Part shown: piece after piece, positions 9,676 to 51,700 of the stretch | Layout of the letters: every line of letters starts with the position of its first letter | Position numbering within the stretch: position 1 is the first letter of the stretch | NCBI GenBank assembly: GCA_001897525.1 | Contig: MKTB01000004.1 | Span: forward strand, 184,012 to 237,033 | Reading direction: 5' to 3' | Length of the DNA: 53,022 nucleotides | DNA from: Bacteroidetes bacterium 43-16 | Lineage (GTDB): Bacteria; Bacteroidota; Bacteroidia; Chitinophagales; Chitinophagaceae | Position numbers and translations under genes: made by a program | The notes under the pieces: model-generated | The model's database searches: none | The model's input: the letters and a program-made list of their open reading frames with translations, nothing else | Told to the model about the DNA's origin: nothing

Positions 9676-11115
9676 TTAAGGACACATTGGAAGTTCAATG
9701 TTTAATTTTAATTGTTCTCCACCATAATAAGCGAAGTGATAGCTTTTAATGTAGTTAAACATAACAGGGTTTCTCTTACCATATCTATCAACAGCCGTAA
9801 TGGATTTGTCATTTGTGTTTTCATTTGACTTTTCTTTGTATTGCCACTGTCCACATTCATCAAAAGACAAATTCGACATTACTTTTGCGTAAATTTTCCG
9901 GTACGGCCCGGTTTTTTCCTTTTTCCATTTATTATTACTGTTCTTCTTCCAAAATTCAGTTTCCGCTTGAATATTGTTTGCCCAATATGAAGAACGACCC
10001 ATTATTCTACAATTAATTTTTGCCTTCCCATCAGCGCTGGTAGCTACCTGGTTTTTTTCTTTCATAGTCTCTTTGTAGCAGTATCCAGTTAATGAATTGG
10101 TAATGGTGATCGGGGAAAAGGGTACAATAATTTCTTCATGTCCATAGATAATTGAACCAACTCCGGAAATATAATCACCTAACAAAATGTAATATTTAAT
10201 ATAAGGATGATAGGTTCCCATTGCCGGGTAGACGTGATCTCTTTCGAACTTAGTGAGCAGGTCAATATTGTTATTTACAGTACTATCACCATCGCCCCAG
10301 TATATCGTGGATTTTGCACTGTAAACGCCTTTTTTCACATTAATTATTGAAACATTAACCTTCCATGCCAATGGGTCGCAGCCAGGTTGGAGTATTTCCT
10401 CACGGGTTTTAATAAGACCATCCGCCTGAGGTGTATATCCAGGGTCAGTACCAATAACTCTACCTGATTCAGAAGGAGCTAGTATTAATAACTCGGTAAA
10501 TATTCCCGGTTTATTTTTTAATACCCATTCACCAATAGAAGATGCGTTTGTTTGATTTGCTTTTGGTATTGTAGCCATAAACGAATAATGATCCATGCGA
10601 TTTTTTGGGAAACCAACAACAGCATCAACATTTAAATACATGAAAATTGAATCACCAATTATTACAGATTTGTCCTTGTTTAAAGAAGATTCAAAGAGTC
10701 TATCAATAAACGGATGCTCATTGACAATATCTTCGAATTTATCCCAGCCTACATTATTGAGAATATCAAAGGTTCTTACAGCTTCGCTCCTGAAAGAAAC
10801 GAAATTACTGAAATTTGCCTGCTCGTACGCCAATAAAATTTCATCGGTGGACAGTTTATTGGTATCTGCGGCATTATCATCTTTATTTTGTTTTTCAAAC
10901 TCGCCGTTTACATACACTTCCAGACCTGAGATGTAGCGATCAAAATGTTCACGGTCTTTAAAAGAAAGCATACCATTTTCAACGGTAGGCATTGATCCGT
11001 TAAGCACTGTTCCGTTTAAAAAACCAAAAGAGCCAGGTTTAGCATCGTCATTAGGCTTCTTACATGAAACTGCAAGCAGTATACTAGATACCGCTAATAA
11101 AATTAATTTTTTCAT
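9676..11115 (-). CDS. PKD-domain lipoprotein
   Basis: A 479-residue protein with a lipoprotein signal: MKKLILLAVSSILLAVSC, Cys18 followed by KKPNDD. Residues about 260-320 look like a PKD/immunoglobulin-like domain, with the typical core STIYWGDGDST then ERDHVYPAMGTY. No enzyme motif is seen. It is probably exposed on the cell surface or in the periplasm and is translationally linked to the barrel protein that follows. The function of the pair, whether adhesion, substrate binding or a phage receptor change, cannot be read. Confidence 0.65.
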   Translation of the reverse strand: MKKLILLAVSSILLAVSCKKPNDDAKPGSFGFLNGTVLNGSMPTVENGMLSFKDREHFDRYISGLEVYVNGEFEKQNKDDNAADTNKLSTDEILLAYEQANFSNFVSFRSEAVRTFDILNNVGWDKFEDIVNEHPFIDRLFESSLNKDKSVIIGDSIFMYLNVDAVVGFPKNRMDHYSFMATIPKANQTNASSIGEWVLKNKPGIFTELLILAPSESGRVIGTDPGYTPQADGLIKTREEILQPGCDPLAWKVNVSIINVKKGVYSAKSTIYWGDGDSTVNNNIDLLTKFERDHVYPAMGTYHPYIKYYILLGDYISGVGSIIYGHEEIIVPFSPITITNSLTGYCYKETMKEKNQVATSADGKAKINCRIMGRSSYWANNIQAETEFWKKNSNNKWKKEKTGPYRKIYAKVMSNLSFDECGQWQYKEKSNENTNDKSITAVDRYGKRNPVMFNYIKSYHFAYYGGEQLKLNIELPMCP

Positions 11116-11225
11116 AAAACTTTAAAAAAAGGTGAGCCGCAAAGGTAGAGTTATAGTTTACTCCCAACAATGGGGGAATTCCCGTATTTTTTATAGTATT
11201 ACTTAAAATCATCGTCAACTACTAA

Positions 11226-24312: not shown

Positions 24313-24594
24313 TATTAAAATGGATTTTTTTAGAAAAAACTTTAGATAAAAGTAAAAGTAAGCAAAACGGTTAAAACTGTTACTAAACAGTAGTTTATAA
24401 AATAGCAGTCTTTGTTTGGAAGTCGGTGTCTGATAGGTTTGGGGCTTAAATAGGCAGGGTTAGGTTACTAAATCATTACCTGTTTTAAATTAATAGACGT
24501 AAATATAAGTGATTATATTTCAGTCTTTTGCACCTCTTTTCATATTCCCTTGTAACTCATAAAAAATTAATTTTAAACATTAAATCTTTGAGTT

Positions 24595-25860
24595 ATGGAG
24601 CGTGAGAAAAGATCCACTTTCAAGTTATTGTTCTACTTGAAAAAGAACGAACCTAAGAAAAACGGAAATGTCCCTGTTATGGGCCGTATTACCATTGATG
24701 GAACTCCGAAAACATTTGGAACCAAATTAGAAATCAATCCTGAGACGTGGGACTTAAAACACGGTCGTGTTTTGGGAAAGAGCAATCTGGCAACCGACAT
24801 CAACCAGAAACTCGATAAAATACGCGTTCGCATCAACAAAATCTATGAAGACATGATGAAAGATGATGGCTTTGCGACCTCACAAAAAGTAAAGCTGTCT
24901 TTCCTTGGTGTGGGTGTTATGGAAGACGCTATCTTAAGGGTATTTAAAGAGCAAAATGAAGATTTTGAAAAAATGGTTTCAAAAGGAAAGCGATCACAGA
25001 ACACTTACAATAAATACAAGACAGTATTCAATCACCTTTCCGAATTTATCAAAGAGCGATACCATAGAGATGATATGGCCTTTAGGGAGTTAACAGGTGA
25101 TTTTATTCGTGAATTTGATTTTTTTCTTCGCATTGATAAGGAATGTACACACAATACGGTTTGGGTTTATACGATGCCTGTTATTGCCTTGGCTGATCTA
25201 GCAATTAAAAAAGGCCTAATAAAACAAAATCCTTTTGAAGATTATGAAATCAGTATGCAAGAAATTGATCGTAGCTATCTCCTAAAGGAAAATGTAGAAA
25301 AGCTCATGTTATTGAAGCTTTCTAAACCTAAATACGAACTTGTAAAAGACCTTTTTATTTTCAGTTGTTTTACTGGCCTTTCATACATTGACATTAAGAA
25401 GCTGAAATGGAGTAACATCCAATCTTTCTTTGATGGCCATCAATGGATCATTAGCAGGAGGAAGAAATCTGACGTTTCTTCAAATGTCAGACTTCTGGAA
25501 ATCCCCAAACGTATTATAGAAAAATACCGGGGGTTAACCAGGAATGATTATGTATTTCCTATGCCCTCAAACGCAACCTGCAATAGCCATGTTGCTAAAC
25601 TTATTAAGGAGGCTGAGATTGTTACTGAGCAGAAAGTTACCTTCCATACCGCACGTCATACATTCGCTACAATGTTTCTAACTGAAGGTGTACCCCTTGA
25701 AAGCCTTAGCAAAATGATGGGTCATAAAAATATTTCGACCACACAAATCTATGCAAAGATTACAAGCCAGAAAATCAGTAAGGATATGGATTTGGTATCT
25801 CATAAATTTGCTGGAATGGAAGCTGCCTTTATTGACATGGAAAGTGATGTTCTTGTTTAG
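24595..25860 (+). CDS. int: Tyrosine recombinase (integrase) of the conjugative element
   Basis: A 421-residue integrase with an arm-binding N-terminus (1-90), core-binding domain (about 110-215) and catalytic domain. The HTARH motif gives His351 and Arg354, His377 lies in MMGHKNIS, and Tyr386 is the nucleophile in TQIYAKI. In box I the usual arginine is replaced: CFTGLSYIDIKKL has Ser263, as known for IntDOT-type recombinases of Bacteroidota transposons. It is the first gene of the element, has its own terminator, and reads inward. Confidence 0.93.
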   Translation: MEREKRSTFKLLFYLKKNEPKKNGNVPVMGRITIDGTPKTFGTKLEINPETWDLKHGRVLGKSNLATDINQKLDKIRVRINKIYEDMMKDDGFATSQKVKLSFLGVGVMEDAILRVFKEQNEDFEKMVSKGKRSQNTYNKYKTVFNHLSEFIKERYHRDDMAFRELTGDFIREFDFFLRIDKECTHNTVWVYTMPVIALADLAIKKGLIKQNPFEDYEISMQEIDRSYLLKENVEKLMLLKLSKPKYELVKDLFIFSCFTGLSYIDIKKLKWSNIQSFFDGHQWIISRRKKSDVSSNVRLLEIPKRIIEKYRGLTRNDYVFPMPSNATCNSHVAKLIKEAEIVTEQKVTFHTARHTFATMFLTEGVPLESLSKMMGHKNISTTQIYAKITSQKISKDMDLVSHKFAGMEAAFIDMESDVLV

Positions 25861-35402: not shown

Positions 35403-35780
35403 CTACAAAGAACAATCTTTACATGTTCCCATAAGTATGCAGTTCACACTTTCTATACGGTAGCCAGCATCTAAAGGTAGATTGACTGGCATAGCCAGGC
35501 ACTCTATAGTCTGGCATTTTGAGCATTGGAAATGAAAATGATTATCTGTAAACTTATTCTCATCGAATTTCATACGTGCAGCAAAATATTGCTTTCCGTC
35601 TTCGGCTACAATTCTGTGTGCTAAGCCGTCTTCGCAAAAGCGGTTAAGGACCCTGTAAATTGTAGCCCGGTCTATTTCGACATCTATTTTCTGCTCAATT
35701 GCTTCACGACTCAGGGCTTTTCCGGCACTAACCAATAAATCAAGTACGGCATGTTTTGAGGGTGTATTTCTACGATTCAT
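35403..35780 (-). CDS. Fur-family metal-dependent repressor
   Basis: 125 residues from ATG 35780 (MNRRNTPSKHAVLDLLV); an upstream TTG at 35801 would run into the operator. Winged-helix DNA-binding part (LSREAIEQKIDVEIDRATIY, RVLNRFCEDGLAHRI), then the dimer domain with HFHFQC and zinc cysteine pairs CSKC and CKDC. Fur, Zur and PerR cannot be told apart by reading. A perfect inverted repeat lies 20 bases upstream, a likely autoregulatory operator. The gene faces away from the methyltransferase. Confidence 0.88.
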   Translation of the reverse strand: MNRRNTPSKHAVLDLLVSAGKALSREAIEQKIDVEIDRATIYRVLNRFCEDGLAHRIVAEDGKQYFAARMKFDENKFTDNHFHFQCSKCQTIECLAMPVNLPLDAGYRIESVNCILMGTCKDCSL

Positions 35781-35800
35781 TTCTGATATTTTCAATAGCA

Positions 35801-35829
35801 AATTTAATGCAAATAAATCGCATTAAATT
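35801..35829. promoter_or_regulatory. Probable Fur-family operator
   Basis: Perfect 10-bp inverted repeat AATTTAATGC/GCATTAAATT with a 9-base spacer, just upstream of the fur-like ATG and within the divergent region shared with the methyltransferase gene. Confidence 0.6.
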
Positions 35830-36654: not shown

Positions 36655-36764
36655 AATGAGTTAATCGACTCCCATAAAAATATATAAGGACTGCAAATTA
36701 TCAAATACAGCGACCTTCTACAGCTAAAAAAGCGAACATACAGGATTCTAAAAGCTTGGATAAT

Positions 36765-36811
36765 ATAGGTAATTTACCTATTGTTTTTTACTCTACTTAA
36801 AAAGAACTTTG
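36765..36811 (+). promoter_or_regulatory. Box A: palindromic operator plus -7 element of the two-component locus
   Basis: A 17-bp palindrome ATAGGTAATTTACCTAT (36765-36781) is followed, 22 bases later, by GAACTTTG (36804-36811), a -7-like element. A 15/17 copy with the identical spacing lies at 39190. This box probably binds the NarL-type regulator of the locus at the -33 position. Confidence 0.55.
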
Positions 36812-36830
36812 TTATTTAAAATATAGGAAA

Positions 36831-37157
36831 ATGACGATAAATGAAAATACAGGTAGGGTAATTTCTTTAGAAGAAGCAATGTCATACACGGCAACATTTC
36901 AAAAAAACAACCCAGATTCCATTAAAGCATTCTTTATTGGATCAGAAAAAGTTAACATGATCCTGCAACAAGAAAACTGTATTGGCATACGGGTATACAA
37001 CGGGTACAATGAAACGTTAGACAAAAATAATCTTGTTTTAGTTGGTGTCGATAAAAAAGGGGAAGATATTTCGGAAGGAATTATTTTGGAAGATTTGTTT
37101 CCCTGTCCTCCCCATTGCTCAAAACTAAGCCCGTTAATTGATCCTGATTTTGTATGA
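36831..37157 (+). CDS. Unknown protein, first gene of the two-component locus
   Basis: 108 residues, soluble: ISLEEAMSYTATFQKNNP, then AFFIGSEKVNMILQQENCIG, and GYNETLDKNNLVLVGVD. It ends in a cysteine pair region (FPCPPHCSKLSP). No recognised domain. It stands directly behind box A, and its end overlaps the following membrane-protein frame by 20 bases, so it belongs to the same transcript as the kinase and regulator. Confidence 0.6.
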   Translation: MTINENTGRVISLEEAMSYTATFQKNNPDSIKAFFIGSEKVNMILQQENCIGIRVYNGYNETLDKNNLVLVGVDKKGEDISEGIILEDLFPCPPHCSKLSPLIDPDFV

Positions 37158-37785
37158 TGCTCTTACATACATAGCGCTATTATCTGGAGTATTGCCGTTA
37201 TCAATACTTGTCATTAGATACAAGTCCGTTTTAGTAAAAGGGCATATTATGCCATTTATCTACCTCACAGCTACTGCAACGGCTTATGAGTTTTTCTGCT
37301 CACTTTTATTGAATGTAAATAGTTCGTATTGGTCACAAGCTTATTCTCTTTTCGAATTGTGTACAATTTATTATTTCTATAATAAGACATTCCAAAGAAA
37401 ATATAAAAGCCTCTTCATTCTTTCTTTTGTCGTTTTGGTTGTTACTTACTGCGTCTCTGCCTTTTTTTGGACTTCGACCAATAGTCTGCTGGCAAAGGCT
37501 ATCAATAAACTACCGATTACAGTATTCGTACTTGGCTTTTCATTTATGTGGGTGAAGGATCTTTTTGGGGAAATGGCTATTGATGCGCCTCAAAACTCCT
37601 CTACTTTTTATTTTATAACAGGGCTATCAATGTACTACTCAATAACATTTTTACTTTTCCTGTTTGGCTACTATATAGCAAATAGCAGTGATTACTTCTA
37701 TGATTTTTGGGTGATCAATATTATAGCAACGATAATTTTAAGAATCTGTTTAACTGTTGGTGTATGGAAAATGAAACCGAATTGA
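37138..37785 (+). CDS. Multi-pass membrane protein, possible sensor partner
   Basis: 215 residues with about seven hydrophobic segments (LTYIALLSGVLPLSILVI; FIYLTATATAYEFFCSLLL; SLFILSFVVLVVTYCVSAFF; ITVFVLGFSFMWV; YSITFLLFLFGYYI; INIIATIILRICLTVGVW). No ATG at the N-terminus; TTG 37138 or TTG 37150 must start it, inside the end of the previous gene. The gene overlaps the kinase by 22 bases. Because the kinase lacks a sensor domain, this protein may be the sensing half. Confidence 0.6.
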   Translation: MILILYDALTYIALLSGVLPLSILVIRYKSVLVKGHIMPFIYLTATATAYEFFCSLLLNVNSSYWSQAYSLFELCTIYYFYNKTFQRKYKSLFILSFVVLVVTYCVSAFFWTSTNSLLAKAINKLPITVFVLGFSFMWVKDLFGEMAIDAPQNSSTFYFITGLSMYYSITFLLFLFGYYIANSSDYFYDFWVINIIATIILRICLTVGVWKMKPN

Positions 37786-38531
37786 AAATACTTTTTTATA
37801 TAGGAACCGCAGTAATGGCACTATCTGTATTAGCTGTTATACTCCTTATCGTTGCATACAGAAGCAAGATCAATTATGTGAATCGTAGAGAATCCGAAAG
37901 CCTGTTGCGCAGCTCTCTGGAGTCGGAAAAAAGAGAACGAAAACGAATTGCTTCAGATCTGCACGACAGTATCAGTGGGGATCTAAGTGCGATCCAGAAT
38001 TACATAACCATACTTCATAATAAGGAAAAGGACACTTTTAAAAAATCAATATTCCTGGAGATTGAGACAGCCTTAGGAAATGTATTAGAAAATGTTCAGG
38101 ATATAAGCTATAACCTAATGCCTCCGATGTTGGAATCTTTAGGCCTTATTTCTACACTAAGAAGCTACTTTTCAAGAATAAGAAAATGGAATAATGTAAC
38201 AATTTATGAAGAATGTGTTGTAGAAAATGTGTACGTCCCTTCTTCGAAAGCCTATGAACTATATCGTATAATTCAAGAACTCATTAATAATATGATCAGG
38301 CATGGGAAGTCCAGCAGAATTGATTTTACCGTCAATAGGGCTGATAAATGGATCGTTTTTGAAATTTCCGATAATGGTACTGCTTTTGATTTTTATAAAA
38401 GTGTAAAAGAACCAAATGGAATGGGTCTTAAAAACATAACTTCAAGGATGAGGCATATCGGTGCAAATCTGACTCAGCTGGATACAGATACAGGCAACAA
38501 ATTACAAATTCATATAGAAAACGAAAAATAA
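37764..38531 (+). CDS. NarL-group sensor histidine kinase without sensor domain (HisKA_3 type)
   Basis: 255 residues from ATG 37764. One transmembrane helix near the N-terminus (KILFYIGTAVMALSVLAVIL), then the dimerisation helix ERKRIASDLHDSISGDLSAI with phospho-His67. The ATP lobe follows: N-box ELINNMIRHGKS, G1 SDNGTAFD, G2 GMGLKNITSRM. There is no periplasmic or PAS domain, so input must come from a partner, probably the membrane protein just before. Stop and regulator start share TAATG. Confidence 0.88.
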   Translation: MENETELKILFYIGTAVMALSVLAVILLIVAYRSKINYVNRRESESLLRSSLESEKRERKRIASDLHDSISGDLSAIQNYITILHNKEKDTFKKSIFLEIETALGNVLENVQDISYNLMPPMLESLGLISTLRSYFSRIRKWNNVTIYEECVVENVYVPSSKAYELYRIIQELINNMIRHGKSSRIDFTVNRADKWIVFEISDNGTAFDFYKSVKEPNGMGLKNITSRMRHIGANLTQLDTDTGNKLQIHIENEK

Positions 38532-39193
38532 TGCTACAAATTGCAATAGTGGATGATCATACACTTTTTAGGAAAAGTTTGGCTCTCTTAATTAATAGTT
38601 TTTCTGAAATGGTTGTGGTTATCGAAGCTTCGAACGGCGTAGAGCTACTCGATAAACTTAACAGTAAGCCTGTCGATATCATACTCCTGGATCTGCAAAT
38701 GCCAGAAATGGATGGTTTTGAAACGTGTAGAAAAGTGAAGCAATTGTATCCCAGCATCAAAATTTTGGTACTTACTCTTATGAATGAGATCGATACTATT
38801 CGAAACGTTGTAAACATGGGAGTACAAGGATATTTTACAAAAAATACCCCGCCCAAAGAGCTGGAAGATGTTATTTGGAAATTGGAAGACAATGGATTCT
38901 ATTTTGAAAAGAGCCTCACTTCGGTAATAAATGAAATACTTGCAAATCCCGATAGTAAGATCTATGAACAAAATGTTCAATTCACTGATCGTGAACTTGA
39001 AATTATCTTATTAACTGCTCAGGGAATGAAAGCTAAGGAAATTGCTGAAACTTTATTCATTAGTACTAAGACGGTAAACGCACACAAACAAAACATTCAG
39101 CATAAATACAATTTCGAAAATATCATGTCTGCCATATTATACTGCGTCCACCATAACATCATTGATTTAAAATCAATTGCCTCGAATAAATAG
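38531..39193 (+). CDS. NarL/LuxR-type response regulator
   Basis: 220 residues. Receiver domain: Asp8-Asp9 acidic pocket, phospho-Asp54 in ILLDLQMP, Lys104. C-terminal LuxR-type HTH from about 150: FTDRELEIILLTAQGMKAKE followed by ISTKTVNAHKQNI. Translationally coupled to the kinase. Its probable targets are the two palindromic boxes at 36765 and 39190, of which the second overlaps this gene's last codons and stop. Confidence 0.92.
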   Translation: MLQIAIVDDHTLFRKSLALLINSFSEMVVVIEASNGVELLDKLNSKPVDIILLDLQMPEMDGFETCRKVKQLYPSIKILVLTLMNEIDTIRNVVNMGVQGYFTKNTPPKELEDVIWKLEDNGFYFEKSLTSVINEILANPDSKIYEQNVQFTDRELEIILLTAQGMKAKEIAETLFISTKTVNAHKQNIQHKYNFENIMSAILYCVHHNIIDLKSIASNK

Positions 39194-39236
39194 TTATTTT
39201 ACCTATTGTACAGGATTTCAGGGTGCGCTAATTTTG
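39190..39236 (+). promoter_or_regulatory. Box B: second copy of the operator with -7 element
   Basis: ATAGTTATTTTACCTAT (39190-39206) matches box A at 15 of 17 positions. After the same 22-base gap comes TAATTTTG (39229-39236), a perfect TAnnTTTG. It precedes the glycine-zipper gene. The shared core is TTTACCTATTGT (36773-36784 and 39198-39209). Confidence 0.6.
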
Positions 39237-39303: not shown

Positions 39304-39978
39304 ATGGCTACAACCTCAATTTTAAGCAATCCCTACAATCAAGTTGGGCAAATGCACAACGACGGAATGCAATTTGTTATCGGCAATATTAATCCGTCTT
39401 CCACCATAGAACAGATTGTTCAGTCTTGCGCATCGTATGTTCAAAAATTGTCAGACAATTCCAGTTCTGAGGCATACGTAAATTGGAACGCATTCATCTC
39501 GGAATCAATTAACAGAACTGAAAAATTGCAGTTGTCCGGTATGATCGACTGGTTACAGCAAAAAGATTTAATTACAAAAGAAGGGATAGATTTTATAAAC
39601 TCCATTAATGATTTATCAGACGATCTATCGTTAAGCGAAGTAGTAAGTAAGATCGACAGCATTGAAAATGATATTCTATCGAGTAAGATGAGTGTCGAAC
39701 AACAATCCTATCCTCTTCTTTATGCAGCTGTTGCAAAATACAGTGCCCAATATGGTGAACTACAGGAAACGAGTTCTAACTCAAAATGGAAAGAGATCAA
39801 AACTGCAAGAAAGTTTAGCTGGCCCTGGAAAAAAGATGCTGAAGGAGCAATAAGCGGAGCAATTGGTGGTGCTATCGGCGGAATAGGTGGCGGCTTGGCT
39901 GGTGTAGGCATAGGGGCATTACTGGGAGCTATCGGTGGTGGGCTCGGATCTTCAATAGCAGCGATTTTTATCAAATAA
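39304..39978 (+). CDS. Unknown protein with C-terminal glycine-zipper membrane segment
   Basis: 224 residues. The N-terminal NPYNQVGQMHNDGMQFVI looks like a conserved start of a Bacteroidota family, followed by a helical acidic part (30-155). Residues 181-222 are a glycine-zipper hydrophobic hairpin: SGAIGGAIGGIGGGLAGVGI and more GxxxG steps. No signal peptide and no double-glycine leader at the N-terminus. Such tails resemble those of pore-forming or membrane-inserting peptides. Box B and a -7 element stand just upstream, so this is the most likely regulon target of the two-component system. Function unknown. Confidence 0.65.
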   Translation: MATTSILSNPYNQVGQMHNDGMQFVIGNINPSSTIEQIVQSCASYVQKLSDNSSSEAYVNWNAFISESINRTEKLQLSGMIDWLQQKDLITKEGIDFINSINDLSDDLSLSEVVSKIDSIENDILSSKMSVEQQSYPLLYAAVAKYSAQYGELQETSSNSKWKEIKTARKFSWPWKKDAEGAISGAIGGAIGGIGGGLAGVGIGALLGAIGGGLGSSIAAIFIK

Positions 39979-40062: not shown

Positions 40063-40638
40063 ATGTTATCGAGAATTTTGTTTGTGCTTCTGTTAAACCC
40101 TTTGCTATTATTCTCTCAAACAAAGGCTGGTGGAAATTGCATTGAGAGTATCAAGCTTTACACAAGCTTTAAGAACTATGAAAATAACCAAGCTAACGAT
40201 AGCATCTGTCTTTCGGGTAAATCTAAAAAGTTCAGCATTTTCTATAATAAATTGGTATTGAAAGATGGACAAAATAAACGTAAATATGCACATGGAAGTT
40301 TATGGGGATATCAAAAAGGCAATGATTTATTTCGTTATTTCGACAAAACTACCACTTTTGGTACGTACGGGTATCACAAAATTATAGATACAGCAGGGCT
40401 CATCATATATTCCAAAAAGGAATCAGGTGGTTACCGGATGTCTTCAACGTATAAACTGTATTTCTACAGTAAGGATTTGAATTCGCCTTTAAAAAAGTTA
40501 ACGATAAAGAATTTGGAAGCCGACTTTCCTAATCCTGAGTTTATTGCCGAATTGAAAAAATTGAAAAAGCTTTCGGTTACACAGGCCGACTCTAACCTGA
40601 AGATTAACGATATCTACAACAAATTTTACAAACATTAA
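40063..40638 (+). CDS. Secreted protein, paralogue 1
   Basis: 191 residues from ATG 40063; an upstream TTG is unlikely. Signal peptide MLSRILFVLLLNPLLLFSQ. The mature part has two cysteines (NCIESIKLY, DSICLSG) and the core YAHGSLWGYQKGN, then DTAGLIIYSKK and YKLYFYSKDL. It aligns along its length with the next gene's product, so the two arose by tandem duplication. It could be an immunity protein, a surface protein or a partner of the glycine-zipper protein; none of this is proved. Confidence 0.65.
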   Translation: MLSRILFVLLLNPLLLFSQTKAGGNCIESIKLYTSFKNYENNQANDSICLSGKSKKFSIFYNKLVLKDGQNKRKYAHGSLWGYQKGNDLFRYFDKTTTFGTYGYHKIIDTAGLIIYSKKESGGYRMSSTYKLYFYSKDLNSPLKKLTIKNLEADFPNPEFIAELKKLKKLSVTQADSNLKINDIYNKFYKH

Positions 40639-40824: not shown

Positions 40825-41430
40825 ATGTCATTATTATTTAGATTTTTATTAGTACTGAGTCCTGCATTTATTTTTGCTCAAGGACATGTAAAAGAAATTG
40901 ATTGTGTAAATAATATTAAGCTTTACAAATCGTATGAAGACTATTCAAAAGGAAAAGTTCTTGATAGTGCGTGTCTATCAAAACAAGGAAATGAACTTGA
41001 AAAATATTGGGGGAGAATAGTACTCAAAAAAGAAAAAGAAAAGAAAAAATATAGCCATGGCAGTTTATGGGGATATCAAATAGGAGAGACTTTATATAGA
41101 TATTCTGACGACGGCAAAACTTTTAAAATTGTATATGGTTACTCCGAATTAGTTGATTCAGATGGATTGTTCATTTATATCTTTCGGGAAGGTTATAACT
41201 ATGGCATTAGGGGAACATACAAAATTCACTACCAATATAGTAAAGACTTAGAATCTCCAATAAAAGAGCTAACCATTAGTAATCTTGCAAAGGATATACA
41301 GAATGCAGATTTTATTGCTGATGTTAAAGCAACTGTTGAGGATTTATCAAAAAACAAAAGTAGCTCGATAAAACAAACTGCAATTAGTGAATTCAACACA
41401 AAATACAGAACGCACTTTCCAAAAAAATGA
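40825..41430 (+). CDS. Secreted protein, paralogue 2
   Basis: 201 residues from ATG 40825. Signal peptide MSLLFRFLLVLSPAFIFAQ. Conserved with paralogue 1: DCVNNIKLYKSY, DSACLSK, YSHGSLWGYQIG, DSDGLFIYIF and YSKDLESPIKELTISNL. The C-terminal tail is lysine-rich. Its stop overlaps the following gene's ATG (ATGA). The 190-base gap in front contains no obvious box A/B copy. Confidence 0.65.
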   Translation: MSLLFRFLLVLSPAFIFAQGHVKEIDCVNNIKLYKSYEDYSKGKVLDSACLSKQGNELEKYWGRIVLKKEKEKKKYSHGSLWGYQIGETLYRYSDDGKTFKIVYGYSELVDSDGLFIYIFREGYNYGIRGTYKIHYQYSKDLESPIKELTISNLAKDIQNADFIADVKATVEDLSKNKSSSIKQTAISEFNTKYRTHFPKK

Positions 41431-41924
41431 ATTTCACATATCAAAAAAAGATGGTTAAATATATTTTGGCACTTATAATCTTGTTTATTTCTCCAATGTT
41501 TTTGCAAGCTCAAATACCAGGAGTTTATAAGTACCATATACCGCATAAAAATAAATCTCTTACAAATAATCTATACAGACAAGGTGTTTTACCAAAAGAT
41601 GCCTTTCCTAATAAGATTATAGAATGGGAAAAAAAACAATTTCTCTTAGTTCAAAAATCTAAAAAAAGTGTTATAAGGGCTTTTAAAATACTGGAAGAAA
41701 GGGAAGAATTTTACATTTTATGTAGTGAGGATGTTGATATTTGTTACTGCAAATCAAGTAGTTTTATTTATTACAAACCTAGCTATAAGCTTCAAAGAAT
41801 TCAAAAGGCTTTTAGCTTTTCACTGAAGCGAAACTTAATTGCAAGACTTCATCAATTCAATATTCCTGTTCCATCAAATTACGAGGATTTGAAATTTTGT
41901 GAGCTTTTGAAACAATTAAAGTAG
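41427..41924 (+). CDS. Small exported protein, unknown
   Basis: 165 residues; ATG 41427 overlaps the previous stop, ATG 41451 is an alternative. Signal peptide VKYILALIILFISPMFLQAQ; the mature part is basic, with ILCSEDVDICYCKSSSF holding three cysteines. Not related to the paralogue pair by reading, but translationally coupled to the second. No recognised domain. Confidence 0.55.
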   Translation: MNFTYQKKMVKYILALIILFISPMFLQAQIPGVYKYHIPHKNKSLTNNLYRQGVLPKDAFPNKIIEWEKKQFLLVQKSKKSVIRAFKILEEREEFYILCSEDVDICYCKSSSFIYYKPSYKLQRIQKAFSFSLKRNLIARLHQFNIPVPSNYEDLKFCELLKQLK

Positions 41925-42156
41925 ACAAAAAGGTGTCACATTTCTGTCGTTATGCGAGTAGTAAGAAAGATCGAAAACATCTAAAATGATATTCCATCGG
42001 TGCAATTAGAGGTTCCTTTGGTGGTATTGATGGATGTAATTGGATAAGGCTTCAAAAACTAGTGTACCTGATGATACAACGAGTGGCTGCCTTAAGAGCT
42101 AATAATATTTACAATAAATATATCGGAAATACCTAAATCACTACTGCCTGATCACT

Positions 42157-42600
42157 TCAATGAACATCCCTAAAATACTGCTCTGCCATTTCCTTTACTC
42201 CCGGACTAAAGTATCTACCACCACTATAAAGTACTTGAAGAGCTGCTCTCAATTCATCAGGATCTGCACCTTTTAAAATATATCCATCAATACCTGATTG
42301 CAACATCCTTGAAACATCACTCTCATCATCATTAATACTAAAACCTAATATTTTTATCATTGGATACTTTTCCTTGATAAACTTAGCGGTTTCGATACCA
42401 TTCATCACCGGCATATTCACATCAAGGATACATACATCCGGCATTATATCACATTTTTCCATTTTTGCTAAAGCTACTTTTCCATTTTCGGCTTCAAATA
42501 TGGTCTGGAAACCAAAGCTTTCAAGACACTTACAAAGTTCACCCCTAAGCAGATCATGATCGTCGATTAGAGCGACCCTGATGATTTGTACTATACTCAT
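42157..42600 (-). CDS. Stand-alone response-regulator receiver
   Basis: 147 residues, CheY-like: acidic pocket LIDDHD, phospho-Asp60 in ILDVNMP, Ser88, Lys110. The wording is NarL-type, but no HTH follows; the protein stops soon after YFSPGVKEMAEQYF. It may act by protein contact or interfere with the nearby two-component system. Its ATG overlaps the stop of the upstream gene (ATGA). Confidence 0.82.
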   Translation of the reverse strand: MSIVQIIRVALIDDHDLLRGELCKCLESFGFQTIFEAENGKVALAKMEKCDIMPDVCILDVNMPVMNGIETAKFIKEKYPMIKILGFSINDDESDVSRMLQSGIDGYILKGADPDELRAALQVLYSGGRYFSPGVKEMAEQYFRDVH

Positions 42601-43812: not shown

Positions 43813-43877
43813 TGATAATCAGATTAGGTTCCACCGAGGGCCCACTTACGGAATTGTTATTTAGTACGTTTTAAAAG

Positions 43878-44846
43878 CTAATTGTCTTTTGCTTTTGTTA
43901 AGAGAGGAATTGCTTTTATATAAAGCAGTTCAAAGAAAATTTCAACAATTGTCTGCGTTACAATAACCACGGCAACCAATTGATTTTCGGGAGCAGGTAA
44001 AGCTAGTGCCAACGGCAATACTACCAATGAATTTCGTGTACTTGTTGAAAATGAAATAGCTCTAGATCCATAAAAATTAACCCTGAATATTTTGGCTGAT
44101 AATTTCCCGATAAATGGGGCAATTATCGCAAATGCTACATAAATCGGAACAACTTTTAAAATTGGTTCGGGGTTGTTATACAATACGCCGATTTGAGAAG
44201 CAATAACCACAAAAAAGGTCAAAGCCATCAAAGGAACAGGCAACCAGCCTGAAAAATCCAAAATTGCTTTTCCGGATTTGCTGTTTGACTTCGATAATAC
44301 TTGTGTTATGATAGAAAGCAGAAATGGAATGACAATTAAGTGAAGAAATGCTTTTACAAACGGGGTTATTTCAATGATCCCTATTGTCTCTTTACCAAGA
44401 AATATCCATAAGTAAAGAGGTAATAATAACATTTGAAGAATAAACAGCAACGGAGTGGAAGCCAAAACAGCTTTAGAATTTCCTTTTCCCAAATGCGAAA
44501 AGACAATGACATAATCGATGCAGGGAGTTAGCAGCACTAAGAGTATTCCAAGCGTTATTATTGACGTTGTTGGAAAAATCCTTATTAAAATCCAAACCAA
44601 TAAAGGGATCAGCAAGAAGTTTCCAAACAATATAGCCTTAAAAAAAGAACGGTCTTTTAGCGCTTGCTTCAACTGTAAAAACGGAATTTGGCAAAACATA
44701 CTGTATAGCAAAATCCCAATTACTGGTTCAATGGCTTTTTCAAGTATGTTAGTCTCCTTCCAATATAGCCCGACAAAAACACTAATTATTAGCGTGATAA
44801 AATATATGCCGATTTGTTTTTCTTCAAGCGTTTCTCTTTTAATCAT
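43878..44846 (-). CDS. Bile acid:sodium symporter/ACR3-like arsenite transporter family protein
   Basis: 322 residues with about ten membrane segments (FITLIISVFVGLYW; VIGILLYSMFCQIPF; LVWILIRIFPTTS). The motif LLTPCIDYVIVFSHLGKG recalls the conserved cysteine region of ACR3-type arsenite exporters. The related SBF family is equally possible, and no ars regulator or reductase is beside it. It is probably cargo. Confidence 0.65.
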   Translation of the reverse strand: MIKRETLEEKQIGIYFITLIISVFVGLYWKETNILEKAIEPVIGILLYSMFCQIPFLQLKQALKDRSFFKAILFGNFLLIPLLVWILIRIFPTTSIITLGILLVLLTPCIDYVIVFSHLGKGNSKAVLASTPLLFILQMLLLPLYLWIFLGKETIGIIEITPFVKAFLHLIVIPFLLSIITQVLSKSNSKSGKAILDFSGWLPVPLMALTFFVVIASQIGVLYNNPEPILKVVPIYVAFAIIAPFIGKLSAKIFRVNFYGSRAISFSTSTRNSLVVLPLALALPAPENQLVAVVIVTQTIVEIFFELLYIKAIPLLTKAKDN

Positions 44847-45029
44847 TTAAAGTCCAAGTTCTGAAATAAAAAAGTATTTTGCCCCGTTGCGCTTAACAAT
44901 TCTAGCCAGGGTTCAACTGGAACGCCACTAACAGAGATTGACAAAGTTAAAAAAATCGAAACACTCCTTTCTATTTTAATGAACCTGTAAACTCGAACAA
45001 TAGTTGAACTGTTGGTACTATTGAGACGA

Positions 45030-46945: not shown

Positions 46946-47113
46946 TTAAGTGTGCTAGAGATGGCTAATCCTTTTGTAATAGGTACAAATCGTACGATTG
47001 GTTACATATCGATTTACCTATAACTGAAAATAGGAAAATTAAAAAAAAATGTCGTATATAGTTTACATTTAGTAACGATTTATTATCTTTATGATAATTT
47101 TATAAGACCTAGT

Positions 47114-47497
47114 ATGAAAAATGGAATGCATATTAAAAGTATATTTTGGGCCTTGATTTTTTCTGTTAGCTTCGCAGTTGGTGTGTATTGCCTGTCCAAA
47201 TATTCGTTACCAATACCGCTAGCACTGCTAATTATTGTGTTTAATTCGCTTTTGTTCGGGGTATATACCTTCAAAAGTATACGAAGCATAAGCTCTTTGG
47301 ATGAAGTACAAATCAGAATTCAATTGGAAGCCGTATCTGTTGCATTTTTTATGTCGTTGCTTTTGGTAATGATTTTAGGAATGGTAGGATTAGTTAAAAA
47401 CTTGGGATTAGATAACATAAGTTACTTGTACATATTTCCTTTGTTCTTCTTTTTCTATTTCATTGGCTTTTTCATTTCAAAACGCAAATACAGATGA
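47114..47497 (+). CDS. Four-helix membrane protein paired with an HTH regulator
   Basis: 127 residues with about four membrane helices (FWALIFSVSFAVGVYCL; LALLIIVFNSLLFGVY; VAFFMSLLLVMILGMVGLV; YIFPLFFFFYFIGFFIS). Small membrane proteins coupled to a Cro/CI-type regulator are frequent, and the next gene overlaps this one by 4 bases. Function unknown, possibly a signal- or toxin-related membrane partner. Confidence 0.7.
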   Translation: MKNGMHIKSIFWALIFSVSFAVGVYCLSKYSLPIPLALLIIVFNSLLFGVYTFKSIRSISSLDEVQIRIQLEAVSVAFFMSLLLVMILGMVGLVKNLGLDNISYLYIFPLFFFFYFIGFFISKRKYR

Positions 47498-47700
47498 AAA
47501 ATACGATAAAAGTTGAGCGAGCAAAGAAAAATTGGACACAAGCAGATTTAGCAGAAAAAATTGGCATATCAAGACAAGCGATGAACTCGATTGAAACCAG
47601 CAAGTTCGTTCCCTCCACTCTTTTAGCTTTAAAATTGGCCCATGCATTTGGGACACCGGTAGAAGAAATTTTTCAATTAGAAGATACCGATTTCAAATAA
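47494..47700 (+). CDS. Cro/CI-type HTH regulator
   Basis: 68 residues, a single HTH_3 domain: KVERAKKNWTQADLAEKIGI followed by SRQAMNSIETSKFVPS, then a short tail LEDTDFK. ATGA overlap with the membrane protein gene indicates a single unit. Confidence 0.9.
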   Translation: MKNTIKVERAKKNWTQADLAEKIGISRQAMNSIETSKFVPSTLLALKLAHAFGTPVEEIFQLEDTDFK

Positions 47701-47717
47701 CTCAACATAATATAGCT

Positions 47718-48209
47718 ATGAATGCACATTCAACTGACAAAAAAACCTTTCAACTGACTGAAAACGGTCAGCGTTTAGGAGAAATAAGTTACGAAAATCT
47801 ATTCTTTCTTAAAGCAGAAATCAATCTTGTAAATACCGAAAAATATAAAGTAGCACCTGTTGGATTTTTTGGAACAAGTATTTCTGTAACCCAAAACGAA
47901 ACACCGATTGCAAGTTTGTCATTAAGCTGGAATGGGAAGATTATCATTACATTTCAAGACGGACAAGAATTTGTCTTAAAACTGAACGATATTTTTTCCG
48001 ACAAATACACCATTGAAAACAAAGACAAAGAAAAGCTCATTGAAATTAAGTCAAAATTCAATTGGAGAGCGTTTCAATACACTCATGACATCTCGTATAA
48101 CGTTGAATATCAAAATAAACCAGAGGAAATGCTACTCGTAATGCTTGGCATATATTCTGTAAACTATTTTATAGCGACTATGTCAGGAGCAAACGCTGGC
48201 ATAATGTAA
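47718..48209 (+). CDS. Unknown, possibly tubby/LURP-like beta-barrel protein
   Basis: 163 residues, beta-rich: FQLTENGQRLGEISYENLFF, GFFGTSISVTQNETPIASLS, SWNGKIIITFQDGQEFVLKL. The pattern recalls the LURP-one/tubby-C fold of small cytosolic proteins. The end is hydrophobic (MLLVMLGIYSVNYFIATMSG). Third gene of the cassette between the traQ copies. Confidence 0.5.
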   Translation: MNAHSTDKKTFQLTENGQRLGEISYENLFFLKAEINLVNTEKYKVAPVGFFGTSISVTQNETPIASLSLSWNGKIIITFQDGQEFVLKLNDIFSDKYTIENKDKEKLIEIKSKFNWRAFQYTHDISYNVEYQNKPEEMLLVMLGIYSVNYFIATMSGANAGIM

Positions 48210-48291
48210 GTAATAACAAACGGCTAACACAGTATTGTTTAGAGGGCGCGTTGCAAAATTGAAAGTTTTTCCCGCCGAAAACTAAAAAGCA

Positions 48292-48316
48292 AAAACCGAC
48301 TTTAAAAGCCGGTTTT
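48292..48316 (-). terminator. Terminator downstream of traQ
   Basis: AAAACCGACTTT and AAAGCCGGTTTT can pair (one G-U on the minus strand), with a TTTTTGC run on the minus strand, 20 bases after the traQ stop. Confidence 0.55.
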
Positions 48317-48336
48317 CATCTTCATTTGTTTGGTTG

Positions 48337-48786
48337 TCAATCACTACTATTAAACTGAAAATTTATCTGTTTTTCATTCCCAAAACTGTCTGAAATCCAA
48401 ACATCAAAGGACTGTGATACGGCAGATGTTGAAGTGTAATATAACCGAAACTGCTCCTTTGGTAATTGGTAAAGGTCATTGGGCAGATAAGGCGGTTCAT
48501 CGTAGTATTGTAACATTCCCTGACCATCAAACTGGAAATAACGTAGGTAATATTGCGTGTTGCTATAATTGCCAGTACGTTTTATGGTCATACGTATTTC
48601 TACCGTCTGTCCATTGGGAACGTCTTTTGGCACAGGCATCACATTTACCTCAAAAGGGAAATCGTTCTGTATTTCGAGTTCGTCATCTTTGCTGCAAGAT
48701 ACCAATGTTACCGAGGCTGTGAGGATTGCCAACAGTATATATAATGGCATTAGCCCTGTTCTGAATTTATTGAATATTGCTATCAT
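48337..48786 (-). CDS. traQ: Conjugal transfer protein TraQ (DUF3872 type)
   Basis: 149 residues. N-terminal hydrophobic stretch with lipobox SVTLVSC (Cys31), so a lipoprotein or envelope protein. The mature part FPFEVNVMPVPKDVPNGQTV, IRMTIKRTGNYSNTQYYLRY and WISDSFGNEKQINFQF is the DUF3872 pattern. Last gene of the tra operon; 11 bases after traO. Confidence 0.85.
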   Translation of the reverse strand: MIAIFNKFRTGLMPLYILLAILTASVTLVSCSKDDELEIQNDFPFEVNVMPVPKDVPNGQTVEIRMTIKRTGNYSNTQYYLRYFQFDGQGMLQYYDEPPYLPNDLYQLPKEQFRLYYTSTSAVSQSFDVWISDSFGNEKQINFQFNSSD

Positions 48787-50359: not shown

Positions 50360-51700
50360 TTATTTTTTTGATACAAGGAAGACTTGATGACCAGCTTTGA
50401 GTGTAACTTTCGGTGTTCTTACTTTTTTGGAGAAGTAGCCAGAAATTCCCTGTATTACGCCACGGCTCATGTCAGCAGCGATCTGTTGCCCTGCCGAGCG
50501 GCTTAACATGAGGCTAGTCCCCGAAGTTTGGCTCATATTGCCCGCCATTTCTGTCAGCGCGTTCATTTCCGGCGAGTACGGAACGTATAAGCCCTGTTGT
50601 CCATCTATGTCGTAAATCGTAATATCTACCGGAATGATATTACCTTCCAGTTCTACAGACATTACTTTTAACTGTAAACGCCCGCCCTGAAATTTGGCAT
50701 TTGCGGTCACAATTGTTCCTTTAGGGATGGTACGTTGTGGCGTTTGGGCTGGCTCCAATAAACGCAAACGCACTCCAGTTTCGCCTATAACCGTTTGCGC
50801 TTCGTGTACGGAGGCTCTAATACTATTTTTGGGCTGTACTACCTGTCCGGTAGCACCTGCGCTGTAGAAACCCCGATTTTTGGATTGGCTCCAGTCTTCT
50901 AAGAAAGCACTGTCCGTCGGTTCTCGATAAAGGGCTGAAACAGTATTTTTCCGTGCCGGTGTAAACGCTACAAAATGCTCTTTTTGGTTTATACCCGCAG
51001 CAGCGGGAGTTGTACCGCCAGTGGGGGCAGCGCTCCCGGTATTGGCATTTTGTGGCAAATACTTTGCGGCCATTTCGTAGGACTTCTCCATTAATTTTAA
51101 TTGATCATCTACTGTTGCTACAGGCGGCACATCTCTTTCTGATAATTTTTCTTTCAGTTCATCTACTTGTCTTCGGAGTTGCATTGTTTCCGAATTATCG
51201 TCCTGATAGAATGAACCCAATGTACTTTGCATATTGCGGTAGCTGTTCAATGTGGGATTTCCGTTTCTTCCAGGTTTTCTGCTATTACTGCCAAAGCCAG
51301 AATTCTCCTCCTCATTAGTAAATAGCTCCTCTGTAGGCTCTTCTTTTTCTTCCGAATTCCAGTAGTCTGATAGCGTTGCCAGAGCATTACGTTTTTCCTG
51401 GTCTTTACGTTCCAACATTTCCTGTTCATAAGCCTTGCCTTTATCGTCAGGCATTCCTGCTCCCGTTGCCTGTGGAACGGCATCGTTCAGTCCGATATTC
51501 TCAGTGGTCTTATTATCTTCGGAGGGCTTAAATATGAGGTACATACAACCCACGAAGACAATCGCCATTAAGCCAAAGATTAAAGGCTTTTTCAGCTTTT
51601 CCTTGTTATTCTGTGCGCCATTTTGTAGCACATCAGCAGTTGCAGCCGGATTTCCCTCGGTTACCCGAACAACCGATTTTTTGTTCTCATTTTCTTTCAT
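50360..51700 (-). CDS. traM: Conjugal transfer protein TraM
   Basis: 446 residues. One membrane helix (LIFGLMAIVFVGCMYLIF), a long charged and disordered linker, then the VirB10-like C-terminal domain (VRLRLLEPAQTPQRTIPKGT, KVMSVELEGNIIPVDITIYD, GQQGLYVPYSPEMNALTEMA). TraM spans from the inner membrane to the core complex. Overlaps traL by 14 bases. Confidence 0.9.
   Translation of the reverse strand: MKENENKKSVVRVTEGNPAATADVLQNGAQNNKEKLKKPLIFGLMAIVFVGCMYLIFKPSEDNKTTENIGLNDAVPQATGAGMPDDKGKAYEQEMLERKDQEKRNALATLSDYWNSEEKEEPTEELFTNEEENSGFGSNSRKPGRNGNPTLNSYRNMQSTLGSFYQDDNSETMQLRRQVDELKEKLSERDVPPVATVDDQLKLMEKSYEMAAKYLPQNANTGSAAPTGGTTPAAAGINQKEHFVAFTPARKNTVSALYREPTDSAFLEDWSQSKNRGFYSAGATGQVVQPKNSIRASVHEAQTVIGETGVRLRLLEPAQTPQRTIPKGTIVTANAKFQGGRLQLKVMSVELEGNIIPVDITIYDIDGQQGLYVPYSPEMNALTEMAGNMSQTSGTSLMLSRSAGQQIAADMSRGVIQGISGYFSKKVRTPKVTLKAGHQVFLVSKK

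What the first reader, a model, noticed from the sequence alone, without database searches (positions are those of the whole stretch)
36765..39236. Two near-identical operator boxes with identical spacing define a regulon for the element's two-component system
Box A (36765-36781) is a perfect 17-bp palindrome. Box B (39190-39206) matches it at 15 of 17 bases. In both cases a -7-like element (GAACTTTG, TAATTTTG) begins exactly 23 bases after the last box base. Box A precedes the operon that encodes the regulator; box B overlaps the regulator's stop codon and precedes the glycine-zipper gene. This implies autoregulation plus one dedicated output gene. Identical placement at the -33 region is unlikely by chance.
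Basis: partly seen in the sequence, partly recalled or inferred. Interest (0 to 1): 0.75.

Follow-up and report, generated by a model that had tools for sequence, protein, structure and literature searches.

The report
Private operator pair of ICE-borne two-component system
A mobile element in a Pedobacter-type bacterium carries its own sensor-regulator gene set with two matching DNA docking sites, one in front of the set itself and one in front of a single glycine-rich output gene, and a relative of this system on the same chromosome uses the same site layout, with different letters, in front of dozens of genes, a few of them antiviral.

Summary
Box A (36765-36781) is a perfect 8-1-8 palindrome. 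Box B (39190-39206) matches it at 15 of 17 bases. Both lie exactly 22 nt before a KANNTTTG element. A second site this good at this geometry is expected 2-3.4e-5 times per window. In the 4.73 Mb genome the exact pattern occurs only at these two places. Pedobacter antarcticus carries the same element (95-97% identical) at another chromosomal place, and its genome has the same two sites only.
A paralogous operon (cis108-TM-HK-RR) in the same genome supports the reading. Its promoter region, and that of its relative in G240, carries a different palindrome, ATACGGGAATTCCnGTAT, also ending 22 nt before KANNTTTG. That operator occurs 28 and 17 times in the two genomes with this RR, and 0 or 1 times in the other 382 of 384 family genomes. 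Geometry is kept while operator letters and HTH diverged (REC 63%, HTH 38% identity). The window boxes are therefore most likely the private operators of the element's own regulator: autoregulation plus one output, the glycine-zipper gene. Binding and direction of regulation are untested.

The parts
36765..36781 (+). Box A, perfect 17-bp palindrome (operator of the TCS operon)
   Evidence: no difference to P. antarcticus across box, spacer and -7 element, while 10 of the 110 bases before the box (36655-36764) differ
36782..36811 (+). TG completing a TTG with the last box base (-33-like), 22-nt spacer and -7 element GAACTTTG (36804-36811)
   Evidence: consensus TAnnTTTG/TTTG from passages of PMC7366714
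36831..37157 (+). cis108: small protein with a C-terminal PCPPHC motif, first gene of the operon; no Pfam, NCBIfam or PADLOC match
   Evidence: homologues in 57 of 195 family genomes at E<=1e-3
37138..37785 (+). TM210: hydrophobic protein, 40% identical to its paralog; no Pfam match; start codon uncertain (TTG at 37138; 37153-37782 was used in the searches)
37767..38531 (+). Histidine kinase, HisKA_3 + HATPase_c, no sensor domain recognised by Pfam
38531..39193 (+). Response regulator, REC + GerE (NarL/FixJ type)
39190..39206 (+). Box B, 15 of 17 identical to box A, overlaps the RR stop codon (operator of GZ)
   Evidence: unchanged in P. antarcticus through the -7 element (the 90 bases before it, RR coding, have one difference)
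39207..39236 (+). TG completing a TTG, 22-nt spacer and -7 element TAATTTTG (39229-39236)
39304..39978 (+). GZ: 224-aa protein, N-terminal NPYNQVGQMHN motif and C-terminal glycine zipper; putative output gene
   Evidence: no family match; structure model too poor to use (mean pLDDT 39)
40063..40638 (+). S6, unknown, 44% identical to S7
40825..41430 (+). S7, paralog of S6
41451..41924 (+). S8, unknown
41943..41999 (+). Decayed piece of a second GZ-like gene (84% over 58 columns to 39624-39681)
   Evidence: 0 of 100 shuffles reach the score

Best explanation
The two boxes are the private operators of the NarL/FixJ-type response regulator encoded by the cis108-TM210-HK-RR operon of an integrative conjugative element. 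The phosphorylated RR would bind as a dimer to the 17-bp palindrome, whose downstream edge merges with a TTG (-33-like) and lies exactly 22 nt before the -7 element. Its centre would then be about 40-45 bp before the start of transcription, the classical class II activator position (recalled). There it would recruit the Bacteroidota housekeeping sigma factor. Box A would make the operon self-amplifying; box B would switch on GZ as the one dedicated output. Shown: sites, spacing, rarity, conservation in a second host, and the same geometry with other letters in the paralogous system with its many sites. Inferred: binding, phosphorylation dependence, activation rather than repression, the transcription start, and that GZ is the effector.
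For: (1) Chance at this geometry is 2-3.4e-5 per window, and only two exact sites exist in 4.73 Mb. (2) P. antarcticus has both boxes, spacers and -7 elements unchanged, next to a stretch before box A with 10 differences in 110 bases, and no other site at this geometry in its 4.6 Mb. (3) The paralogous operon C33 (L059) and the G240 operon (L088) each carry two copies of another palindrome, ATACGGGAATTCC[A/C]GTAT, each followed by TG (making TTG) and by GAATTTTG after 22 nt. (4) searched that operator without a promoter: 46 places, loci for 30; 23 of the 30 read in the TTG direction; of these 18 have KANNTTTG at exactly 22 nt, 1 at 21 and 4 at no gap from 10 to 39; two of the 18 also have one at 14. 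(5) Operator plus promoter at up to 2 mismatches: G000 28, G240 17, 18 genomes 1 each, 364 of 384 none; these two are also the only genomes of 384 listed with an RR 91% or more identical to RR_p. (6) The flank AATA, outside the query pattern, is conserved at 0.71-0.93 in 45 sites. (7) Between the two RRs REC is 63% (76/120) and HTH 38% (24/63) identical, and the recognition helix differs, matching diverged operators.
Against: No binding, footprint or transcript data. The two genomes with RR_p are of one genus, so the co-occurrence is not two independent events. The fixed geometry is not seen in more distant homologous operons: no palindrome of 7 of 8 or better at 21-23 nt in 18 loci (L060-L077, both strands) and, at 22 nt, only one in 14 further loci (L103, 4518, + strand, pointing away from cis108); none at 22 nt in 7 loci around other RR relatives. 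G099 has an RR 47% identical to RR_p but no such operator and no recognisable cis108, TM210 or HK in the 16 kb fetched. The -7 element of box A begins with G, not T. Box B is an imperfect palindrome. Another DNA-binding protein that always travels with these operons is not excluded.
Confidence: 0.85

Rival explanations
1. The boxes are operators of the RR, but the RR represses at least one of the two promoters (negative autoregulation, or GZ kept silent until the signal).
For: The box merges with the -33-like TTG, so a bound dimer could also block RNA polymerase. Both promoters have recognisable -7 elements.
Against: The position is the one expected of class II activators (recalled). The -7 elements of the paralog's sites often start with G (0.47 of 45 sites), as weak, activated promoters might. 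This is inference from position only.
Confidence: 0.2
2. The boxes are bound by another regulator of the element or host (for example the FUR-family gene at 35403-35801 or the orphan receiver at 42157-42600), not by the RR of this operon.
For: Such genes lie within about 4 kb. The operator assignment rests on comparison only.
Against: The orphan receiver shows only a receiver domain in Pfam. The paralogous operons at C33 and in G240 have the same geometry, and their operator co-occurs with that RR among 384 genomes.
Confidence: 0.08
3. Chance resemblance: box A is one of the common palindromes of AT-rich DNA and box B a coincidental partial copy.
For: Perfect 8-1-8 palindromes occur about 1.9 times per 53 kb in random sequence of this composition; loose patterns are not enriched.
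Against: Joint expectation 2-3.4e-5; same geometry in the paralogous operons; footprints unchanged in P. antarcticus.
Confidence: 0.02
4. Box B is not a separate output promoter but a duplicate left by recombination; GZ is simply the fifth gene of the operon.
For: No terminator-like site between RR and GZ; GZ follows RR on the same strand.
Against: Box B keeps the exact spacing and a consensus -7 element (TAATTTTG) and is unchanged in P. antarcticus. The two promoters differ in their spacers.
Confidence: 0.1

Closest known systems
NarL/FixJ-type two-component systems (NarXL, LiaSR/VraSR, UhpBA)
   Same: HisKA_3 kinase with a REC-GerE regulator; best solved relatives are VraR (3.1e-30) and NarL (1.3e-24). 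Palindromic operators and autoregulation are common in this group (recalled).
   Different: Two extra genes (cis108, TM210) in the operon; 17-bp operator locked 22 nt before a Bacteroidota -7 element; carried by a mobile element with one apparent output gene.
Bacteroidota primary promoter (-7 TAnnTTTG, -33 TTTG)
   Same: -7 elements TAATTTTG and GAACTTTG; TTG next to the box at the -33 place (consensus read in passages of PMC7366714).
   Different: Box A's -7 starts with G; the -33 part is only TTG and merges with the operator. The same passage says that no -33 motif could be identified in Flavobacterium johnsoniae.
PpoS/PpoR of Marinomonas mediterranea, a TCS controlling CRISPR-Cas (PMC8523701; abstract and outline seen)
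   Same: A two-component system with CRISPR-Cas genes among its targets, as the chromosomal paralog here may have (Cas6-Cas3).
   Different: PpoS/R resembles BarA/UvrY and acts with CsrA and sRNAs; here a dispersed operator is seen and the evidence is sequence only.
Cdz glycine-zipper contact-dependent bacteriocins of Caulobacter (PMC5380434; passages seen)
   Same: Glycine zipper in the putative output protein; carriage on a genomic island.
   Different: CdzC/D are 86 and 84 aa with type I secretion genes; GZ is 224 aa with an N-terminal NPYN..G..HN module, and the neighbours scanned gave no secretion family. No killing activity is known.

Membership tests
NarL/FixJ-type response regulator | REC domain followed by GerE (LuxR-type) HTH | tested here: met
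   PF00072 4.7e-27 and PF00196 1.6e-16
NarL/FixJ-type response regulator | HisKA_3 kinase in the same operon | tested here: met
   PF07730 2.6e-6, PF02518 1e-7
NarL/FixJ-type response regulator | Equivalog level of a named member (NarL, UhpA, RcsB and others) | tested here: not met
   best NCBIfam match NarL, 122 bits against a cut-off of 250; all 25 shown of 104 are below their cut-offs
Autoregulated two-component system | Operator in the promoter of its own operon | tested here: met
   box A ends 49 nt before cis108; the same arrangement in L059 and L088
Autoregulated two-component system | Regulator binds the operator | not testable with these tools
   needs EMSA or footprinting
Class II activated promoter | Operator overlaps or abuts the upstream promoter element at fixed distance from the -7/-10 | tested here: met
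   22 nt in both window sites and in 18 of 23 paralog sites
Class II activated promoter | Transcription rises on regulator binding | not testable with these tools
   no expression data
Bacteroidota primary promoter | -7 TAnnTTTG | tested here: inconclusive
   box B TAATTTTG fits; box A GAACTTTG misses the first T
Integrative conjugative element | Integrase and conjugation genes, different chromosomal places in different hosts | tested here: met
   Phage_integrase 24595-25860 and Transposon_TraM 50360-51700; homology to P. antarcticus starts at 24324 at 95-97% with different neighbours. Transfer itself and the right end were not examined.
Cdz-type glycine-zipper bacteriocin | Small (about 5-10 kDa) zipper protein with type I secretion genes | tested here: not met
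   GZ is 224 aa; the ten cassette and neighbour proteins scanned show no secretion family
Known anti-phage defence system | PADLOC match in the cassette | tested here: not met
   cis108, TM210, HK, GZ and S6 give none at E<=0.01; RR, S7 and S8 were not scanned

The most novel reading that the evidence does not exclude
In this Pedobacter-like lineage a four-gene two-component system (cis108-TM-HK-RR) commands a dispersed regulon of about 28 promoters in G000 (17 in G240) through an operator locked 22 nt before the -7 element, including CRISPR-Cas (Cas6-Cas3) and a TIR-NLR gene in G000 and a TIR-TM gene and a PARIS-like AriAB gene in the sister genome: a chromosomal coordinator of antiviral and conflict genes. 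The element of the window carries a copy whose HTH and operator have changed together while geometry and receiver stayed, so that it runs its own toxin-like output (GZ) without entering the host's regulon.
Probability: 0.35. Interest if true: 0.75.

Novelty: new variant of a known kind. Interest (0 to 1): 0.52.

Why it matters
Operators of response regulators in Bacteroidota of this kind are little described (my own knowledge; the searches made are listed under Tried and rejected). Here operator, promoter spacing and regulator can be read off the sequence in two paralogous systems, one mobile and private, one chromosomal with many sites. That gives a clean, testable case of specificity divergence after duplication, and a candidate two-component coordinator of dispersed defence genes.

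Tried and rejected
Loose pattern searches (at up to 2 mismatches) gave no enrichment over controls and were replaced by strict, geometry-bound tests. One search's chance estimate from 10 Mb of random sequence found no match at all and was repeated with 60 Mb for each of two models. Two 1-mismatch places elsewhere (ATGGCTATTTTACCTAT, C4:79231 and C15:246946) lie inside ORFs and were dropped as chance. Palindromes of 7 of 8 or better near KANNTTTG in more distant loci (L090, L091, L100, L105, L106; L265, L267; L103) are at other gaps or, in L103, at 22 nt on the strand pointing away from cis108; I take them as chance. P1 of the paralog as a small peptide gene: only short ORFs with TTG or GTG starts. 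Rfam gives nothing but the tRNA in the window. A second GZ remnant before S7, suggested by a 17-aa match, was not borne out by DNA comparison (12 of 100 shuffles reach the score) and is dropped; the remnant behind S8 is kept. The GZ structure prediction is too poor, so no fold search was made. The share of defence genes behind paralog sites was not compared with a random gene set.

Literature: open-library searches (12 of 546 papers listed; 20 of 42; 4 of 4; 10 of 287,329; 5 of 5; none found). No listed title or abstract describes this system or operator; that covers only this library, these terms and what was listed.

Full report
What was checked. Box A at 36765-36781 is a perfect palindrome of 8 paired bases around one centre. 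Box B at 39190-39206 has 15 of its 17 bases. Each is followed by TGT, making TTG with the last box base, and a -7-like element starts after exactly 22 nt (GAACTTTG, TAATTTTG). In random sequence with the window's dinucleotides, a 17-mer this close to box A is expected 0.02-0.03 times in the window on both strands, and 2-3.4e-5 times together with the -7 element at 22 nt. The pattern with promoter gives four places at up to 3 mismatches, none in the reversed control: box A (0), box B (1), C7:59586 (2) and C8:26728 (3, which is also a paralog site at 1).

Surroundings. Box A precedes an operon of four genes: cis108, TM210, a HisKA_3 kinase and a REC-GerE regulator. Box B overlaps the regulator's stop codon and precedes GZ, a 224-aa protein with a glycine zipper. 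No Pfam or NCBIfam family matches cis108, TM210, GZ or the three genes behind GZ, and PADLOC none of the five cassette proteins scanned. The cassette is cargo of an integrative element with a Phage_integrase gene and a TraM gene. Homology with Pedobacter antarcticus begins at window 24324 and runs at 95-97% to the window's end apart from two gaps, but the neighbouring genes differ: an M49 peptidase in the window, an enoyl-CoA-hydratase-like gene (named by reading its translation) in P. antarcticus; 100 kb of that record were compared. In P. antarcticus both boxes, spacers and -7 elements are unchanged, while the 110 bases before box A carry ten differences. Its genome has exactly these two sites at up to 3 mismatches.

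The paralog. The same genome holds a second cis108-TM-HK-RR operon (C33, L059; RR 51% identical), and genome G240 of the same genus a third (L088, RR 91% identical to L059's). L059 has no window-type box and none shows in the L088 scan. Instead both carry, twice, ATACGGGAATTCC[A/C]GTAT followed by TG and, after exactly 22 nt, GAATTTTG. This operator is frequent in just these two genomes. ATACGGGAATTCCNGTATTGT at up to 2 mismatches gives 30 places in G000 and 16 in G240 (palindromic double readings included), 0 in the three other genus members, and reversed controls 0 in all five. With the promoter and up to 3 mismatches: G000 36, G240 22, G192 3, G031 1, G125 0; reversed controls in that order 0, 1, 0, 1, 1. 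Across 384 family genomes at up to 2 mismatches: 28 and 17, then 18 genomes with one hit each and 364 with none; eight genomes have one reversed-control hit. P. antarcticus has none. Of 30 operator loci fetched without asking for the promoter, 23 read in the TTG direction; 18 have KANNTTTG at 22 nt, one at 21 nt, four at none of 10-39 nt. The outer AATA, not in the query, is conserved in 45 sites. This is strong comparative evidence that the regulator of such an operon binds a palindrome at this fixed place, and it carries over to the window's boxes, whose regulator differs most in the HTH (REC 76/120, HTH 24/63 identical).

What the paralog may control. In 42 fetched stretches 52 of the 58 sites of G000 and G240 were re-found; four of them belong to the two operons themselves. 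Behind the 48 others I chose 34 first ORFs (sites without a clear ATG ORF of about 55 aa or more nearby were dropped). At E<=1e-5 the PADLOC matches include TIR-NLR (L192, 2e-123), AriAB (L211, 1e-115), Cas6b (1.4e-87; L182 is the Cas6 by Pfam) and TIR-TM (L202, 1.6e-12). Pfam adds Fic, zeta toxin and Cas3 behind Cas6. At most nine of the 34 have any Pfam match at E<=1e-3, so most are of unknown kind. Several defence genes sit behind variant sites (GGGTTTTCC, or AGTATAGG) that might belong to another regulator, the zeta-toxin site has its -7 element at 21 nt, and no random-gene control was run; the defence reading is a lead.

Mechanism. The operator centre lies about 40-45 bp before the expected start, as in class II activators (inference; the promoter consensus -7 TAnnTTTG and -33 TTTG is from passages of PMC7366714). 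The likeliest circuit is positive autoregulation through box A and one output through box B. GZ could be an effector. Of four weak relatives looked at, L078, L095 and L096 share the N-terminal motif, L078 and L096 look like lipoproteins, L096 also ends in a glycine-rich stretch, and L097 shares only a glycine-rich stretch. S6 and S7 behind GZ are paralogs (44%), and a decayed GZ piece lies behind S8. This would fit a toxin-like gene with partners, but nothing here shows activity, and the structure prediction failed.

Results against. Palindromes of 7 of 8 or better were not found at 21-23 nt in 18 more distant loci (L060-L077), at 22 nt in only one of 14 others (L103, pointing away from cis108), and at 22 nt in none of 7 loci with further RR relatives. 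G099's RR (47% identical to RR_p) lacks both the operator and recognisable partner genes in the 16 kb fetched. Co-occurrence rests on two genomes of one genus. There is no terminator-like site between RR and GZ, so box B may add to read-through rather than act alone.

Noticed in passing
window 11140-11183 (-): A paralog-type operator and promoter without mismatch (GGGAATTCCCCCATTGT, then TACCTTTG after the same spacing) in front of a lipoprotein-like gene (about 9679-11115, -), outside the element.
   Followed up: partly
L059 5815-6051 (-); L088 5875-6130 (+): The paralogous operon has two operator-promoters 219 (L059) and 183 (L088) bp apart; between them lies a terminator-like hairpin with a T run, so the upstream promoter may make a short RNA of about 120-160 nt. 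The fold is stronger than shuffles in L059 (-40.5 against -24.9, sd 3.5) but not in L088 (-16.8 against -14.5, sd 3.1).
   Followed up: partly
L182 (G000:C10:122500-125900): A Cas6-Cas3 CRISPR gene set starts 46 nt behind a paralog-type operator-promoter (1 mismatch, in the -7 element).
   Followed up: partly
L178 450-1322: Lipoprotein-like protein behind a paralog-type operator without mismatch has an N-terminal motif (YYNVGLVHNLGLQHLI) resembling that of GZ (YNQVGQMHNDGMQFVI; 12/33 identical, E 0.004 in a single comparison).
   Followed up: partly
window 41943-41999: Decayed piece of a second GZ-like gene behind S8; P. antarcticus has about 130 additional bases near there.
   Followed up: partly
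window 24324 and L273 12901: Left end of the element; it sits beside an M49 peptidase gene in the window genome and beside an enoyl-CoA-hydratase-like gene in P. antarcticus.
   Followed up: partly
window 43813-44868 and 46953-48339: Two stretches of the element absent from the aligned P. antarcticus copy, the first holding a sodium-bile-acid-symporter-family gene (43878-44846).
   Followed up: no
G000 C17:262750, C17:300633; G240 C3:39608, C8:417459 and others: A variant operator GGGTTTTCCAGTATTG with the same promoter geometry, before AriAB-like, Fic and unknown genes; it may belong to a further related regulator.
   Followed up: no
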